A stretch of DNA of 24,198 bases from Chromera velia (taxonomy: Eukaryota; Sar; Chromeraceae): NCBI GenBank assembly GCA_018398765.1, contig JAHBMJ010001530.1, forward strand, positions 1 through 24,198. Reading direction: 5' to 3'. Of this stretch, positions 947 through 24,198 are shown one piece after another. The translations under genes and the position numbers were made by a program. The notes under the pieces were generated by a model, which saw nothing but the letters and a program-made list of their open reading frames with translations, was not told the DNA's origin and searched no databases. The first letter of the stretch is position 1; every line of letters starts with the position of its first letter.

Positions 947-1804
947 CTGAGCACAAATGCACCGCAAAAATTCATGACATGAAGTGGCCCGCTCACGCCC
1001 GCTGGTCCAGATAAGCGAAATCTCTAGCTGCCATGACCATCACTCTCAGTGCATGACGGACCGCTACGCAAATCGATCCGAAACAACCGTTCAGAAAAGG
1101 TTAGGAGACGGAGTGACTGACCTTCGCCGATTTTTGCATGCTTGCATGCGATTCACGATCGAGCTCACGCGCAATTCGCGAGATGCAATTCTGCCGAGGC
1201 GTATGCATCCGGGGTGGCCGCCGGCCCCGCAAAGTTTTTGGTCTAAAAAGCGCCCACCCACCATACTGCACAAACTCCTGCACGCGAACCCGCGTCAGTT
1301 CACGCGCAGCATGCAGCTATATAATTAATGAATAATTGGCACGCGAACCCGCGTCAGTTCACGCGCAGCATGCAGCTATATAATTAATTAAGCCAGACCC
1401 GTGCACACGCGAAATTGAAAGTTTCGCTTTTCTGGGCCAATCGCCTCAGTCGATCAGACGCAGTGAGAAGGATCGATTCATGTAAGTGCCTCACAAAAGC
1501 CTTTTCCGGGGCCACAATCTGAACCCAACCCCCGTCCTCAAATCCAAACCCTCTCGATCAGACTCGAGCGTTGCATGCAACACTTCTTTGCAACATGCAG
1601 CAACCCATGCACATTGCATGAACGTGTCTGACACCTTGAAAATCAGACCGACGAGTCAAAACTGCCAGCACACTTTTGCTCTCTACAGAAAACTCCCCTT
1701 TTACTGGTGTACAGGGTCTCACACTCCAGCAAAGTCGAGTCAACGCAACGCAGTCAATCCAAGTTCTGAGGTTGCCTCACATTGGCCACACTGAGACCAA
1801 CCCG
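947..1804. promoter_or_regulatory. Divergent intergenic region with GCATGC motifs
   Basis: This non-coding stretch separates the start codons of two divergent genes and should hold both promoters. Five GCATGC cores lie at 1135-1141, 1143-1149, 1309-1314, 1368-1373 and 1572-1579. The last is TGCATGCA inside the perfect 12-bp palindrome GTTGCATGCAAC (1570-1581). A TATATAATTAAT string occurs in each copy of the tandem repeat at 1280-1388. Short open frames here have no protein-like character. That this is a shared promoter is inferred from position. Confidence 0.45.
1280..1388. repeat. Exact 50-bp tandem direct repeat, period 59
   Basis: Positions 1280-1329 and 1339-1388 are identical over 50 bp, beginning GCACGCGAACCCGCG and ending TATATAATTAAT, with a 9-bp spacer. 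Each copy carries several ACGCG/CGCG strings, one GCATGC and one TATA-like string. The lack of any mismatch suggests a recent duplication or selection. It lies about 420 bp upstream of the plus-strand start codon and 334 bp upstream of the minus-strand one. Confidence 0.9.
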
Positions 1805-2836
1805 ATGAGTGACATGACTTCGTTCAAACAACTCGGTATCTCTCAGGACGCACTTCTTGAGAGGATGACGGCGGAAGAGATCAAGCCCCACCCCCACTAC
1901 CAGGCTGGTGGACTGTTCTTTAACAAATCACCACAGGAGATGCCCACAGATGAAGTGCGAGCTCAATGTGATCTCGTCATGAGCGGCGAGTTCTGTGCCT
2001 TCTACTTGGCCGCACAGCCGATCAATCACTTCGACAAAGAAACGGGCGAATGGAAGCTTGCCGGGACTGAATTGCTACTTCGTGCCCGAGATGGGAAGCA
2101 GGCCTTTCCGACAGCAGTGGTCTACCACGCCACTGCAGATCAACGAGAACGTCTTTTGCTTTGGCAGCTGCGTGAAGCGAAAAAGCTTGTGGACAGTCGA
2201 AGGTCCCCGATGGTGACAGTCAACGCGTGGCTACAGGATTTGTACAGTCGCCTTGATGAAGTGGTGGAACTTATTCATGACACTTCCGTGGTCATTGAGG
2301 TGACAGAGTACACTAAGCAACAGGACACGGTTGGTTTTCCGTCTACTAGCGTTGCACTGGACCTTCCCCATACCATTAAGGTGGTGACGTTGCTTCGCCA
2401 GAGAGGTGTCCTGGTGGCGTTGGATGACGTCAATGCGCTGAAAGAGGGGTACCCCCTGAATGCGGCGGCAGCCCTCGCTGTGGCTCCTTTCGTGCCGATC
2501 ATCAAGATGGACATCATGATGCTGATGAGATTGTACCAGAGTGTGCCGATGGCTTGGCAGCCTGACAAAAGTTTCAAGCCCAACGGTTTCCTTTCCAAGA
2601 AGATGATGGAGGAAGGTACGGAAGGACTCGAGAGAGATCGACAGAAGGTTGCTGAATTCGTGCAGCAGCTGTGGAGTTTGAACCCCAGTTTGAGGATTGT
2701 CGTTGAGCTCTCCGTTACTTCCGAGGAGATAGCGAACTCTTTCGCTGAAATCGGAGGATGGGGGTTTGTGACGGACCCCCGTGTTTGCATTCAGGGCGGC
2801 AAGACTCACGATTGGGCGGAAGAGGTGGTCTTCTGA
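1805..2836 (+). CDS. EAL-domain-like protein (cyclic-di-GMP phosphodiesterase fold), intronless
   Basis: A 343-residue single-exon protein starts MSDMTSF, the first ATG in this frame; the open frame extends upstream without ATG to about 1676. The domain order follows a bacterial EAL domain: AQPI near 70, ELLLR at 89-93 (E-A-L reads E-L-L), VTVN ending at N140, VIEVTE with E165 and E168, VALDDV with D207 and D208, IIKMD with K234 and D236, VVEL with E301, and IQGG with Q330. These match the metal- and substrate-binding E, N, E, D, K, E and Q positions known for EAL enzymes. Loop 6 is degenerate (DDVNAL instead of DDFGTG), and EGVE reads ELSV, so activity may be weak or lost and the protein could instead bind ligand. 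About 60 N-terminal residues are unassigned, and a loop around 245-280 is longer than usual. No signal peptide or membrane segment is seen. Confidence 0.72.
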   Translation: MSDMTSFKQLGISQDALLERMTAEEIKPHPHYQAGGLFFNKSPQEMPTDEVRAQCDLVMSGEFCAFYLAAQPINHFDKETGEWKLAGTELLLRARDGKQAFPTAVVYHATADQRERLLLWQLREAKKLVDSRRSPMVTVNAWLQDLYSRLDEVVELIHDTSVVIEVTEYTKQQDTVGFPSTSVALDLPHTIKVVTLLRQRGVLVALDDVNALKEGYPLNAAAALAVAPFVPIIKMDIMMLMRLYQSVPMAWQPDKSFKPNGFLSKKMMEEGTEGLERDRQKVAEFVQQLWSLNPSLRIVVELSVTSEEIANSFAEIGGWGFVTDPRVCIQGGKTHDWAEEVVF

Positions 2837-4588: not shown

Positions 4589-4903
4589 TTAACAGCTGCA
4601 TTTTTTCTCAAACTCTTCCACTTCTGGCAGGGCGTGCTTGCGCATGAGCGAGGCTGCTTCATGTGATGTTGAGTGCCAGCCATGCCATACCACCTCATAA
4701 TGCCATCCTCTTCCCTGCTTGTACTTCCTAAGAATTTCCTTCACCTGACAGCCCTGAACCCAGCTTCCCTTCTTTTCTTTGACTGCTTTCTTCGGCTGCT
4801 CTGGCTGTCTGGGGGCGAGGTCCTTATGTGCTTTGCTTGTGTGAATGCGAAGCCCCCGGGGGGTGGAAAACGTTCGTCCACACACACACACATTATATTC
4901 TAT
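4589..4903 (-). pseudogene. C2H2 finger plus chromodomain, transposon-derived fragment
   Basis: The open frame encodes about 104 residues and ends at a stop at 4591-4589. It opens just after a TGA at 4906-4904 and has no ATG. The N-terminus reads CVCGRTFSTPRGLRIH followed by TSKAH, which is a C2H2-like finger with C-x-C instead of C-x2-C. It resembles the N-terminal fingers of R2-type retroelements. A basic Lys/Pro linker follows, then a chromodomain-like stretch: QVKEILRKYKQGRGWHYEVV, then WHGW, and an acidic C-terminus (EVEEFEKK). In the usual tWEp motif the W is replaced (STSHEAA). Chromodomains at the C-terminus of mobile-element integrases bind modified histones, and that may be the origin here. 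The first finger Cys pair is encoded by a GT microsatellite (4869-4885), so slippage may have changed it. It lies 90 bp outside the LTR element, on the opposite strand. Confidence 0.55.
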
Positions 4904-6684: not shown

Positions 6685-8022
6685 ATGCCTACTCTTCTGA
6701 AAGTAAAGGCAAAGGCGAAAGCCGCCTTTACTGCTGTTGCCAAGGCCAAAGCAAAAAGACTAGCAAAAGCAAAGGCACAACCAAAAGGCAAAGCAAACGC
6801 AAAAGCAAAAGTTGCCCCACAACTGATCATTCCTGAGCAACTTCAAGGACTCCCTATACAGGTGAATAGACAACAAGAAGCAGCCGAACACCCACCTGTA
6901 CAAGAAGGTCATGACGTCCATATGGCAGGGGTCGACCAACTCCCACCTGCACAACACCAAGGAGACGGTGGAGAAGGCGAAGAAGTCCAAGCTATGCAGG
7001 TAGAAGGAGAAGGGCAACCCGGACTCCCTGAAGGACCTGCACCTACACAACAAGGCAACCGACAAGGAGAGCCCTCTGCTTTCAAAGGGATCGATCCGCA
7101 GTTTTTCAGAGAACTGCAGAACCAAGGCTTCTGTTTCAAGATGGATGAATGAGGAAATATCATCCCTATGCGTATAGACCCTCCCCATGCTGCAACTGCC
7201 CCCTTCCTTTATCCCCCAATAGAAACGAGAATGGACAGAGATGTACCCAAGGTGAAAATAGACCTCCCTTCCTTTTTCGGAGACCGCACCCAAGCAAAAG
7301 CTTATTGAAAATGAATGACACGTCTCTTTAACAGAATGGAGTGGAATTTTCTTGACTTCCGTGACATGTATTTCCCCTCCACCCTGACTGGTAGAGCCAC
7401 TACATGGTATGACCGACTCCCTACCAGAAAACTGTGCCTTGTCAGTTCCCTCAGTCAGTTGATCGAACTCTTCATGAACGAGTACGACCTAACCGAAGCT
7501 GACCAGGATACTGCCGAAGAACAACTTTTTACCCTCAACCAGACCCTCACTGAGTCCGTTGATGACTACGCCATCCGATATCGGAGACTCTGCGATGAAA
7601 GCAGAAGAGACGCGGACTCCGCCCCCACCTTCAAACACTTCATCAAGGGCTTATTCAACGAGAATATATGCGTAGCTCTCCGCATGAAGTCATACACATC
7701 CTTTCAGAATCTCCTCCATGACATGAAAAGCTACATCCATGTTGCTTCTACACCTTCTTATATCGTCTCTACAACGCAAACAGCTGCGAACGAAAGCACA
7801 GATGAGTACAACATGCCGCCAAAACCAGATCTGCTAAACATGTATGCAAAACGGTGGTTACCGAGAAATGAACGGTCTGACATCAATTACACACGGTGCA
7901 CTGATACATACTCTCATGACATGAAGACAGGGCGTTGTGCTGTCTCTCCAGAAACGGAGTGCAGACATTGTCTTAAAAAAGGGCACATTCACGCAGCGTG
8001 TTTCCAGCTGAAGAGACATTGA
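6685..8022 (+). pseudogene. gag: Retrotransposon gag with three in-frame TGA codons
   Basis: Translation from ATG 6685 to the TGA at 8020-8022 covers 445 codons interrupted only by TGA at 7150, 7306 and 7312. The N-terminal 60 residues are an extreme Lys/Ala run (KVKAKAKAAF), presumably nucleic-acid binding, followed by an acidic Gln/Glu/Gly linker. After the TGA cluster comes the retrotransposon-gag domain: STLTGRATTWYDRLP, then LIELFMNEY, then LFTLNQTLTESVDDYAIRYR. Near the C-terminus is a CCHC zinc knuckle, CRHCLKKGHIHAAC (C-x2-C-x4-H-x4-C). Gag forms the particle and packages the RNA in Ty3/gypsy elements. The stops could be decay (CGA to TGA or TGG to TGA) or readthrough. The same frame continues after 8022 as a Lys-rich tail to 8229 with no conserved protease. 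Confidence 0.8.
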
Positions 8023-21984: not shown

Positions 21985-24003
21985 TCATCCTGGTGAGGAC
22001 ACCCCCCAAGATGACGACCCGCTCTGTTGTACGGACTTCAGGGGCGCTCCTTTTGTTTGGGGCTGCCCCCTCTGTCCCTGCTCATTCACTTGCTGCACGT
22101 CTACAGATATTCCTACTGACCCACTTCCACCTTCTCCTCCTGTGTGGGTGCTTCCAGACGGCAGGGGCCACTGGGCTGCACGCCGCAAAGGTTCATTCCC
22201 CTGTCCTTCTCCCCAAGACGCTGATATTCGCTGCTCCTCCTCTCCTTCTGCACAAGCGGGCATCACCCCTGACGCCCCCGCCTCCCAGGCCTGCTGCATC
22301 CCTGCTGGGCCTGTATCTGCACCCCCATTCCGCATTATGGGACGCTGTGAAGGGGGGCTCTGCTGATTCGGATTCAGCATCTCCAGAGGGAACGGAAACG
22401 CAGGGGCGGGGGGGACTGAACCTCCACCACCCGCCGAAGGATGAACTCCCTGCTGCTGTGGCTGCCCCCCCTCGCCCCCCATCCCCCTTGAGCTTTCAGG
22501 AGGGGGGGGGCTGTCTCTGAAGATTGAGGGGATCCAGTCAAATTGGCTCTCGTCAGGTTGGAGGTTCGCCTCCTCTGCATTCATCCCCCCCGTCTGTCGG
22601 GGCTGTGTCTGAAGGAGCCGGGACCCTGCCTGAACACGCGAGTTGCTGCTAGGGGTTGGGAAGGGAAACCCCCCGCCTGCACGTGCAGGGGTCGATACGG
22701 CAGACAGATCGGCAGAGGGACCACCGACGTTGGATGTGTCAACCATCGGAGGGGGGGTCGGGCAGAACGGTGCCATCCCCCCCTGCTGCTGTTGGTGACT
22801 CTGTATACCCCCCTGCTGCTGCTGCTGTTGAGTCTGATTTCGAAGCACCTGCATCCATTCAGGAGACCCATTCATATCAGCTGTGCGCGCTCTCAATACA
22901 GCGCCTCCCCCTCCTGCGGAACCAGCATTTGAACCAGCAGCAGCAGCATTCAACTGAAGAGCTCTATCAACAGACGCAAGATGGGGCTGGACATCGTCGG
23001 ATCCTCCCATGGGGGGGGCAGAGTGTGCGAGTGCAAAATTGGGGAAGGCCAAACGGGAGTGGAGGGAGGAGGGGCCCAACACAGCCGCAGACCCTCTGCC
23101 GGCTCCCTGCACAGGGGTGAGCAACGGAAAGGCCAATGGGTAAGCGAACCCCCCCCCCTCAACAAAAACGGGCAAAGAGCCCCTTCCATGATCCTGAGAG
23201 GTTTCTTGAGCCGTCCCTCTGGAGGGGGTTGGGGGTAAAGGCCCGGGTCCGGATGACGATGAAGAGGGAGCGGTGGCTTGCATCAGGCGGGGGGGACGGG
23301 GTCCCATTCGGCCCTCTGTTATCCACTCCCACCCTCCAGCGGCTCCACCCATCATCATCATACCCCCCCTCCCTCCTCCTCGTCCTGCTCCACGCCCACC
23401 CCCTGCACCTCCTCCGCTCATGCCTCCTGCAGCAGCAGCAGCAGCAGCTGTGGAGGCCGAGACTTCTGCTTCTCCCGTCTCTGCCAAACCCTCTTCACCT
23501 CCTGCTAACGGCACACCCCGGACAGTATCAACACCAGCACTCATAGATGAGGGCGGACGGCCTCCCTCCAAAATCTCGGCACCTCCCTGCAACTGCAAGT
23601 GGGAGTACAGACCCGCCAGCTCCCCCAGCGCCTGCAGAGACTGCTGCTGTTGCAACTGCAGCTGCTGCTCTGATATTCCCCCCCCCCCTCCTGTAACGAG
23701 AGAAGACGGCATCGCTTGAGGGTCCCTCTCCCCGCCTATTCTACCCCCTTTCTGGTCTCCTTGCATTCCAAACATGGAGACAGGAAGAGACGCGAAGGGA
23801 CGCTGACCAGCTGCCCCTTGGTAGGCCCCACTCAGATCATCTCTGCTGGAGCTTGAGGGTACCTGCTGTTGCTGCTGCTGCTGGGGGTGGAGACGGCTAT
23901 GGTCAGGCTGCAGGGACGGGGACAAAAGGGATGCAGAAGATTCGCCGTCCCTATCTGTGGACTCTTGGATGCTTAAGGATCCTGGTTGATCCGCGGCTGT
24001 CAT
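21985..24003 (-). CDS. Gln/Gly/Ser/Pro-rich low-complexity protein
   Basis: A continuous frame of about 672 residues starts at the first ATG (24003, A at -3, reading MTAADQPGSLSIQES) and ends at TGA 21985. The frame extends about 36 codons further upstream without ATG. Poly-Gln runs of 4-7, a Gln/Leu-rich helix-like stretch (ISEQQLQLQQQQSLQALGEL), poly-Ala and Gly/Arg-rich segments, an MMMM run and several Pro-rich stretches alternate. Short less-biased segments such as DESQFDWIPSIFRDSP and SPEWMQVLRNQ may be conserved motifs. No folded domain is recognised. Composition suits a disordered transcriptional or RNA-associated protein, but that is inference. The C-terminus (WGVSSPG) may continue in another exon through an unrecognised donor. 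Antisense frames over the same DNA are shadows. Confidence 0.6.
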   Translation of the reverse strand: MTAADQPGSLSIQESTDRDGESSASLLSPSLQPDHSRLHPQQQQQQQVPSSSSRDDLSGAYQGAAGQRPFASLPVSMFGMQGDQKGGRIGGERDPQAMPSSLVTGGGGGISEQQLQLQQQQSLQALGELAGLYSHLQLQGGAEILEGGRPPSSMSAGVDTVRGVPLAGGEEGLAETGEAEVSASTAAAAAAAGGMSGGGAGGGRGAGRGGGRGGMMMMGGAAGGWEWITEGRMGPRPPRLMQATAPSSSSSGPGPLPPTPSRGTAQETSQDHGRGSLPVFVEGGGFAYPLAFPLLTPVQGAGRGSAAVLGPSSLHSRLAFPNFALAHSAPPMGGSDDVQPHLASVDRALQLNAAAAGSNAGSAGGGGAVLRARTADMNGSPEWMQVLRNQTQQQQQQGGIQSHQQQQGGMAPFCPTPPPMVDTSNVGGPSADLSAVSTPARAGGGFPFPTPSSNSRVQAGSRLLQTQPRQTGGMNAEEANLQPDESQFDWIPSIFRDSPPPPESSRGMGGEGGQPQQQGVHPSAGGGGSVPPAPAFPFPLEMLNPNQQSPPSQRPIMRNGGADTGPAGMQQAWEAGASGVMPACAEGEEEQRISASWGEGQGNEPLRRAAQWPLPSGSTHTGGEGGSGSVGISVDVQQVNEQGQRGQPQTKGAPLKSVQQSGSSSWGVSSPG

Positions 24004-24198
24004 CGTTAGACTCGTTGTCGGTTGGGGGGGGGAGGGGGCGCGTGCGGAATTCGGGGGCGGGGAGAGGGAGAACGAGGGGGGCACGGGTCTTCTGGCGTCT
24101 CCTGTCGTTGAGCTCTCTACAATTTCCCTCTCCCCTTCCTCCTCCTCACCCCTTCTACCTCCCCCCCACCTGCTGTTGCCTCCAAACCCCCCCCCCCC
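24004..24198 (-). promoter_or_regulatory. Upstream region of the Gln-rich gene
   Basis: Purine/G-rich on the gene's strand, probably 5' untranslated. A possible acceptor (AAATTGTAG) lies about 110 bp before the ATG, and CAACAGCAG/GTGGGG could be a donor. The window ends in a run of 13 C. Confidence 0.3.

What the first reader, a model, noticed from the sequence alone, without database searches (positions are those of the whole stretch)
1805..2836. EAL-type (cyclic-di-GMP) domain protein encoded by an intronless gene in a eukaryote
All seven metal/substrate-binding positions typical of EAL phosphodiesterases appear in order (E89, N140, E165, D207, K234, E301, Q330), although loop 6 and the EGVE motif are degenerate. 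Cyclic-di-GMP signalling is overwhelmingly bacterial, so a single-exon copy beside an intron-bearing gene suggests horizontal acquisition, or a eukaryotic family with a changed role.
Basis: partly seen in the sequence, partly recalled or inferred. Interest (0 to 1): 0.7.

Follow-up and report, generated by a model that had tools for sequence, protein, structure and literature searches.

The report
Divergent EAL-like gene in an alga
A nuclear gene of a single-celled photosynthetic eukaryote encodes a very divergent relative of the bacterial EAL domain, which breaks down the signal molecule cyclic di-GMP, so the alga may handle a bacterial signal or may have reused the fold for something else.

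Summary
The frame at 1805-2836 (+) is a real, host-adapted gene: 343 codons, no stop, coding periodicity, codon choice better than 1,000 GC3-matched controls. It is a distant EAL relative. Pfam EAL is sub-threshold (19.4 bits, cut-off 31.3). A profile of 88 EAL domains of the HDOD-EAL ("YuxH") kind scores 21.4 bits, against 6.8 for the best of 10,000 shuffles; HHalign gives 95.7% over residues 59-240. My canonical-EAL profiles do not separate it from shuffles. E89, N140, E165, D207 and K234 align in several programs; E301 and Q330 do not, and residues 241-343 match neither profile better than shuffles. The degenerate loop 6 is also found in bacterial YuxH-type EALs. The tree places the protein between both bacterial groups. 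No close relative was found in the collections searched, and no GGDEF or canonical EAL elsewhere in the genome, within sensitivity limits. The fold stays untested: the single-sequence model is poor (pLDDT 39) and the alignment-based job was never accepted. Likely an old bacterial acquisition; catalysis undecided. New variant of a known kind.

The parts
1805..2836 (+). Open reading frame, 343 residues plus stop, EAL-like protein
   Evidence: Translation; stop-free run and codon-position GC; codon choice; single copy
1805..1996 (+). N-terminal extension, residues 1-64, no family match
   Evidence: The Pfam match begins at residue 65; HHalign begins at residue 59
1997..2524 (+). EAL-like core, residues 65-240, with E89, N140, E165, E168, D207, D208 and K234
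   Evidence: Pfam EAL sub-threshold; YuxH-type profile 21.4 bits; HHalign 95.7% over 59-240; MAFFT columns
2525..2833 (+). C-terminal part, residues 241-343; should hold the last barrel strands; register unresolved (E301 by eye, or E270/Q287 by MAFFT)
   Evidence: No better than shuffles in either profile; no match to the matching profile columns; low-confidence secondary structure

Best explanation
The gene encodes an EAL-like protein of a photosynthetic alveolate, descended from a bacterial EAL protein by an old transfer and since adapted to the host. It most likely keeps the EAL barrel and metal centre (E89, N140, E165, D207/D208) and the catalytic lysine (K234), binds cyclic di-GMP or a related dinucleotide, and cleaves it to the linear form. 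As no GGDEF synthase was found in the same genome, the ligand would come from outside, from associated or ingested bacteria. Shown here: a real gene in a eukaryotic genome, EAL homology over residues 59-240, the conserved residues up to K234. Inferred: the complete barrel, metal binding, catalysis, the source of the ligand, and the direction of transfer. The homology alone I hold at about 0.9; the whole statement, catalysis included, at 0.4.
For: YuxH-type profile 21.4 bits against 6.8 for the best of 10,000 shuffles; an eight-sequence version 17.2 against 8.5; HHalign 95.7% (YuxH-type) and 93.6% (canonical) up to residue 240; metal and lysine positions kept at about 20-30% identity; host-like codon choice. 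YuxH is a working phosphodiesterase in Bacillus velezensis: its deletion raised c-di-GMP (PMC12029170, passages); that this YuxH is of the HDOD-EAL kind is recalled.
Against: Pfam EAL is below its cut-off. The canonical 86-domain profile gives 8.7 bits and 2 of 10,000 shuffles beat it; the eight-sequence E. coli profile gives 4.2 bits and at least five shuffles beat it. The tail is no better than shuffles, so the strand-7 glutamate and the strand-8 glutamine are unplaced. No trustworthy model. No c-di-GMP source found in the genome. The YuxH-type comparison was chosen after the likeness was noticed, which the shuffles do not correct for.
Confidence: 0.4

Rival explanations
1. A degenerate EAL protein that no longer cleaves c-di-GMP and works as a ligand sensor or a protein-binding scaffold, as the inactive bacterial EAL protein YdiV does (recalled).
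For: Strand-7 and strand-8 residues not found; DDVNAL instead of DDFGTG; no GGDEF partner found.
Against: The five residues E89, N140, E165, D207 and K234 are kept although the rest has diverged to about 20%. YuxH-types, which also lack the GTG, include a working enzyme (PMC12029170, passages; subfamily recalled).
Confidence: 0.4
2. Not an EAL at all: another barrel or alpha/beta protein that resembles the EAL motifs by chance.
For: Sub-threshold Pfam score; canonical profiles no better than shuffles; the C-terminal half without a match.
Against: 0 of 10,000 shuffles reach the YuxH-type score, best 6.8 against 21.4; the motifs come in EAL order with their neighbours; the best BLAST hit among the fetched open frames is an EAL domain in register, 53% over 30 residues.
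Confidence: 0.1
3. Bacterial contamination, or a very recent insertion of a bacterial gene.
For: EAL is overwhelmingly bacterial; the Chromera paper reports that bacterial scaffolds had to be removed (PMC4501334, passages), if that is the host.
Against: The gene lies in a gap-free 24 kb contig (0 N) with a Ty3-type gag; host-like codon choice; no near bacterial match.
Confidence: 0.03

Closest known systems
HDOD-EAL proteins of bacteria (YuxH kind; COG3434 is recalled)
   Same: Opening 'QPI...ELLxR', an AT(A) stretch, N, ExxE, ALDD without GTG, IIKxD
   Different: No HDOD domain in the Pfam scan; T167 as in canonical EALs where 38 of 40 YuxH-types have L; inserts after E168 and after D208; outside the YuxH-type clade in the tree
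Canonical EAL phosphodiesterases (PdeL, DosP, PdeH of E. coli)
   Same: E89, N140, E165, T167, E168, D207, K234 columns
   Different: Profile score no better than shuffles; DDFGTG, AEGVE and VQG not found in place
Diguanylate cyclase DgcA of Dictyostelium
   Same: A bacterial c-di-GMP gene kept in a eukaryote, described as acquired by horizontal transfer (PMC10559540, abstract)
   Different: DgcA makes c-di-GMP; this protein resembles the degrading domain, in another eukaryotic lineage

Membership tests
EAL domain (PF00563) | Score above Pfam's curated cut-off | tested here: not met
   19.4 bits against 31.3
EAL domain (PF00563) | Sequence homology to EAL domains | tested here: met
   YuxH-type EAL profile 21.4 bits against a best shuffle of 6.8; HHalign 95.7% and 93.6%; only up to residue 240
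EAL domain (PF00563) | First five ligand positions (E, N, E, D, K) | tested here: met
   E89, N140, E165, D207 and K234 in conserved columns
EAL domain (PF00563) | Strand-7 glutamate and strand-8 glutamine | tested here: inconclusive
   Two possible registers, neither better than shuffles
EAL domain (PF00563) | EAL barrel fold | tested here: inconclusive
   Only a single-sequence model, pLDDT 39.3, pTM 0.30; the alignment-based job was not accepted (12 tries)
EAL domain (PF00563) | c-di-GMP phosphodiesterase activity | not testable with these tools
   Needs the purified protein
HDOD-EAL (YuxH kind) | HDOD domain after the EAL domain | tested here: not met
   No HDOD in the Pfam scan at E <= 1; the protein ends 103 residues after the core, whereas most of the 88 bacterial frames continue for about 200 residues after the EAL match
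HDOD-EAL (YuxH kind) | Groups inside the YuxH-type clade | tested here: not met
   It attaches between YuxH-type and canonical EALs in a 75-row, 136-column tree (few columns, bootstrap not settled)

The most novel reading that the evidence does not exclude
A eukaryotic alga holds its own working cyclic-dinucleotide phosphodiesterase, a third EAL lineage beside the canonical and HDOD-EAL types, and uses it to read or disarm the c-di-GMP of associated bacteria.
Probability: 0.2. Interest if true: 0.8.

Novelty: new variant of a known kind. Interest (0 to 1): 0.5.

Why it matters
One abstract states that among eukaryotes c-di-GMP is made and used only by Dictyostelium (PMC10399225, abstract seen in the listing). 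An EAL-type protein kept in an alveolate alga would be a second, independent entry of this bacterial signalling chemistry into eukaryotes, on the degrading side, and a testable handle on signalling between alga and bacteria. If it is inactive, it is still a bacterial signalling fold kept for a new role.

Tried and rejected
Second copy in the genome: the only other hit (C3917, E 0.89) lies opposite a 597-residue open frame that looks to me, by eye, like a serine-peptidase gene, so I took it as spurious.

Close relatives: none in viral contigs, species genomes, plasmids or phages. Whole-genome searches with the protein gave a match at E <= 0.01 in 3 of 398, 0 of 398 and 1 of 395 genomes. A fourth (centre L202) listed the same hits and the same handles, so I count it as no new sample. 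Of these four hits, L211 is an EAL domain, L210 and L213 gave no EAL match, and L212 was not opened. The searches are insensitive: of nine genomes whose loci carry a YuxH-type EAL only 1 of 9 rang even at E <= 10, and that hit (L209) is a canonical EAL. They speak only against nearer relatives.

Other c-di-GMP genes in the genome: PF00563 and PF00990 gave no match at E <= 0.1, but PF00563 did not find this gene itself (0 candidates), so equally divergent or intron-split genes could be missed.

Canonical-EAL reading: my canonical profiles do not separate the protein from shuffles; kept as evidence against.

Rows left out: 30 of the 31 loci were left out of the YuxH-type profile before scoring (I took them for canonical EALs; all but L098 score far lower on the eight-sequence profile); of the other 89 loci 88 gave a domain. 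78 of the 80 loci entered the canonical profile. The tree used 40 of 88 and 34 of 86 rows after removal of similar ones.

Host name: Chromera velia is suggested by size (177.8 Mb in 4,040 contigs here; 193.66 Mb in 5,953 scaffolds in PMC4501334, passages), by 11 alveolin matches (that model also rings in Caulobacter) and by 58 light-harvesting matches. It is not proved; the 18S query did not complete.

Papers: searches listed no report of an EAL protein in an alveolate, as far as titles and abstract openings show. Of PMC4501334, PMC12029170 and PMC4686194 I saw passages only; of all others the listing.

Full report
What was checked. The frame 1805-2836 (+) translates without a stop into 343 residues. 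It lies in a 398-codon stop-free frame that begins at 1640; with 3.76% stop codons over the six frames of the window such a run has a chance of about 2e-7 per starting point. GC by codon position is 0.60, 0.38, 0.62; in 12 host stretches GC3 runs from 0.62 to 0.84, so the gene is at the low end. Codon choice scores -0.046 on a scale built from those stretches (1,430 codons of light-harvesting and alveolin genes, which score 0.264 on themselves); 1,000 synonymous versions with matched GC3 average -0.259 with a maximum of -0.078, and the other five frames score -0.179 to -0.429. It is a host-adapted coding gene. The window has no N and holds a Ty3-type gag (Retrotrans_gag, E 3.5e-11).

Which domain. 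Pfam's EAL model is the best hit, 19.4 bits, E 7.5e-4, over residues 65-210, but below the curated 31.3 bits. NCBIfam gives a weak hit to the HmsP family over residues 62-236 (E 0.0075). No Protein Data Bank sequence matches at E <= 1. A profile of 86 canonical EAL domains (8 from E. coli, 78 of the 80 loci) gives only 8.7 bits, and 2 of 10,000 shuffles beat it. An E. coli-only profile gives 4.2 bits, beaten by at least five shuffles.

A better-fitting subfamily. The stretches 'AAQPI...TELLLRARDG..AFP' and 'VALDDV...IIKMD' recalled the HDOD-EAL proteins (YuxH kind). A profile of eight of them gave 17.2 bits against 8.5 for the best of 10,000 shuffles. With 80 more loci from bacterial genomes and one from a viral contig the profile holds 88 domains (of 89 loci) and scores 21.4 bits; the best shuffle gives 6.8. 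HHalign gives 95.7% and p 9.9e-9 over residues 59-240 for this profile, and 93.6% and p 2.1e-7 over residues 58-240 for the canonical one. The subfamily was picked after seeing the likeness, which these controls do not correct for.

Which residues. MAFFT puts E89, N140, E165, E168, D207 and K234 into conserved EAL columns with E. coli enzymes, with YuxH-types (in one search N140 is not among the invariant columns) and with both; D208 is conserved or nearly so where YuxH-types are included. On the other hand T167 is the canonical letter (T in 33 of 34 canonical rows, L in 38 of 40 YuxH-type rows), so the protein mixes both types. The C-terminal part is the weak point. E301 and Q330 align to the glutamate and glutamine columns in no alignment made here. 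MAFFT prefers E270 and Q287; K234 to E270 is 36 residues, as I recall it for canonical enzymes. Against shuffled tails neither profile finds more than chance (104 of 200 and 87 of 200 shuffles reach the best score). The single-sequence AlphaFold2 model is not trustworthy (pLDDT 39.3, pTM 0.30); it draws a helix 266-292, a strand 297-301, a helix 307-314 and a strand 319-322, an element order that would put E301 at the tip of strand 7. In that reading T323 or D324, not Q330, would stand near the end of strand 8. The job with an alignment was never accepted.

Where it comes from. In a tree of 40 YuxH-type and 34 canonical EALs (136 columns) the protein sits on the branch between the two groups; the YuxH-type rows are set apart from it with 100/99 support. 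The tool warns of few columns and a bootstrap that had not settled; the end branch is 1.15 and the highest identity 33% over 131 columns. Searches for nearer relatives in viral contigs, bacterial genomes, plasmids and phages found none. Of 1,191 whole genomes drawn from three phylum groups, 4 have a weak hit at E <= 0.01: one EAL domain, two without an EAL match, one not opened. These searches miss similarity at the YuxH level, so they speak only against close relatives. Acquisition from bacteria is the natural reading, but it must be old, or the gene fast-evolving; other eukaryotes could not be searched.

Context. One copy in the genome. No canonical EAL and no GGDEF domain was found, with the caveat that the EAL search did not find this gene either. 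The genome carries alveolin and light-harvesting matches: a photosynthetic alveolate, probably Chromera velia (by size and recall only; assembly figures from passages of PMC4501334).

How it may work. If the barrel is complete, E89, N140, E165 and D207/D208 would hold the metal ions and K234 would help to activate the water, as in known EAL enzymes (recalled). That these residues are kept while the rest has diverged argues for a working site; the unplaced strand-7 and strand-8 residues argue against it. YuxH is a working phosphodiesterase in Bacillus velezensis: its deletion raised c-di-GMP (PMC12029170, passages; that it is an HDOD-EAL protein is recalled). With no GGDEF partner found, the likely substrate is bacterial c-di-GMP that reaches the cell, or another dinucleotide. 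The eukaryotic c-di-GMP user named in the papers seen is Dictyostelium, with a transferred diguanylate cyclase (PMC4686194, PMC10399225 and PMC10559540, abstracts; passages of the first).

Verdict. A real gene, a real but distant EAL relationship, eukaryotic and host-adapted; a separate branch rather than a plain member of either bacterial group; function open between phosphodiesterase and binding-only.

Noticed in passing
window 7315-8022 (+): Ty3-type retrotransposon gag (Retrotrans_gag, E 3.5e-11), ending in a zinc-knuckle-like stretch seen by eye; the 155-residue frame 6685-7152 just before it had no Pfam hit.
   Followed up: partly
window 4589-4891 (-): 100-residue frame with a sub-threshold C2H2 zinc-finger match (E 0.0062) and, by eye, a chromodomain-like stretch.
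   Followed up: partly
window 1284-1391 (+): A stretch of about 50 bases upstream of the gene appears twice, head to tail, as seen in the sequence.
   Followed up: no
window 21985-24084 (-): 699-residue low-complexity frame rich in Q, G and S, open to the window's end, without a Pfam hit.
   Followed up: partly
L163:1501-2094: The YuxH-type EAL match in a Clostridium frigoris contig has an in-frame stop codon.
   Followed up: no
L202 (G009): The record title says Mycobacteriaceae, but the phylum sample around it listed the same genomes and hits as the one around Pseudoalteromonas, so title and grouping disagree.
   Followed up: no
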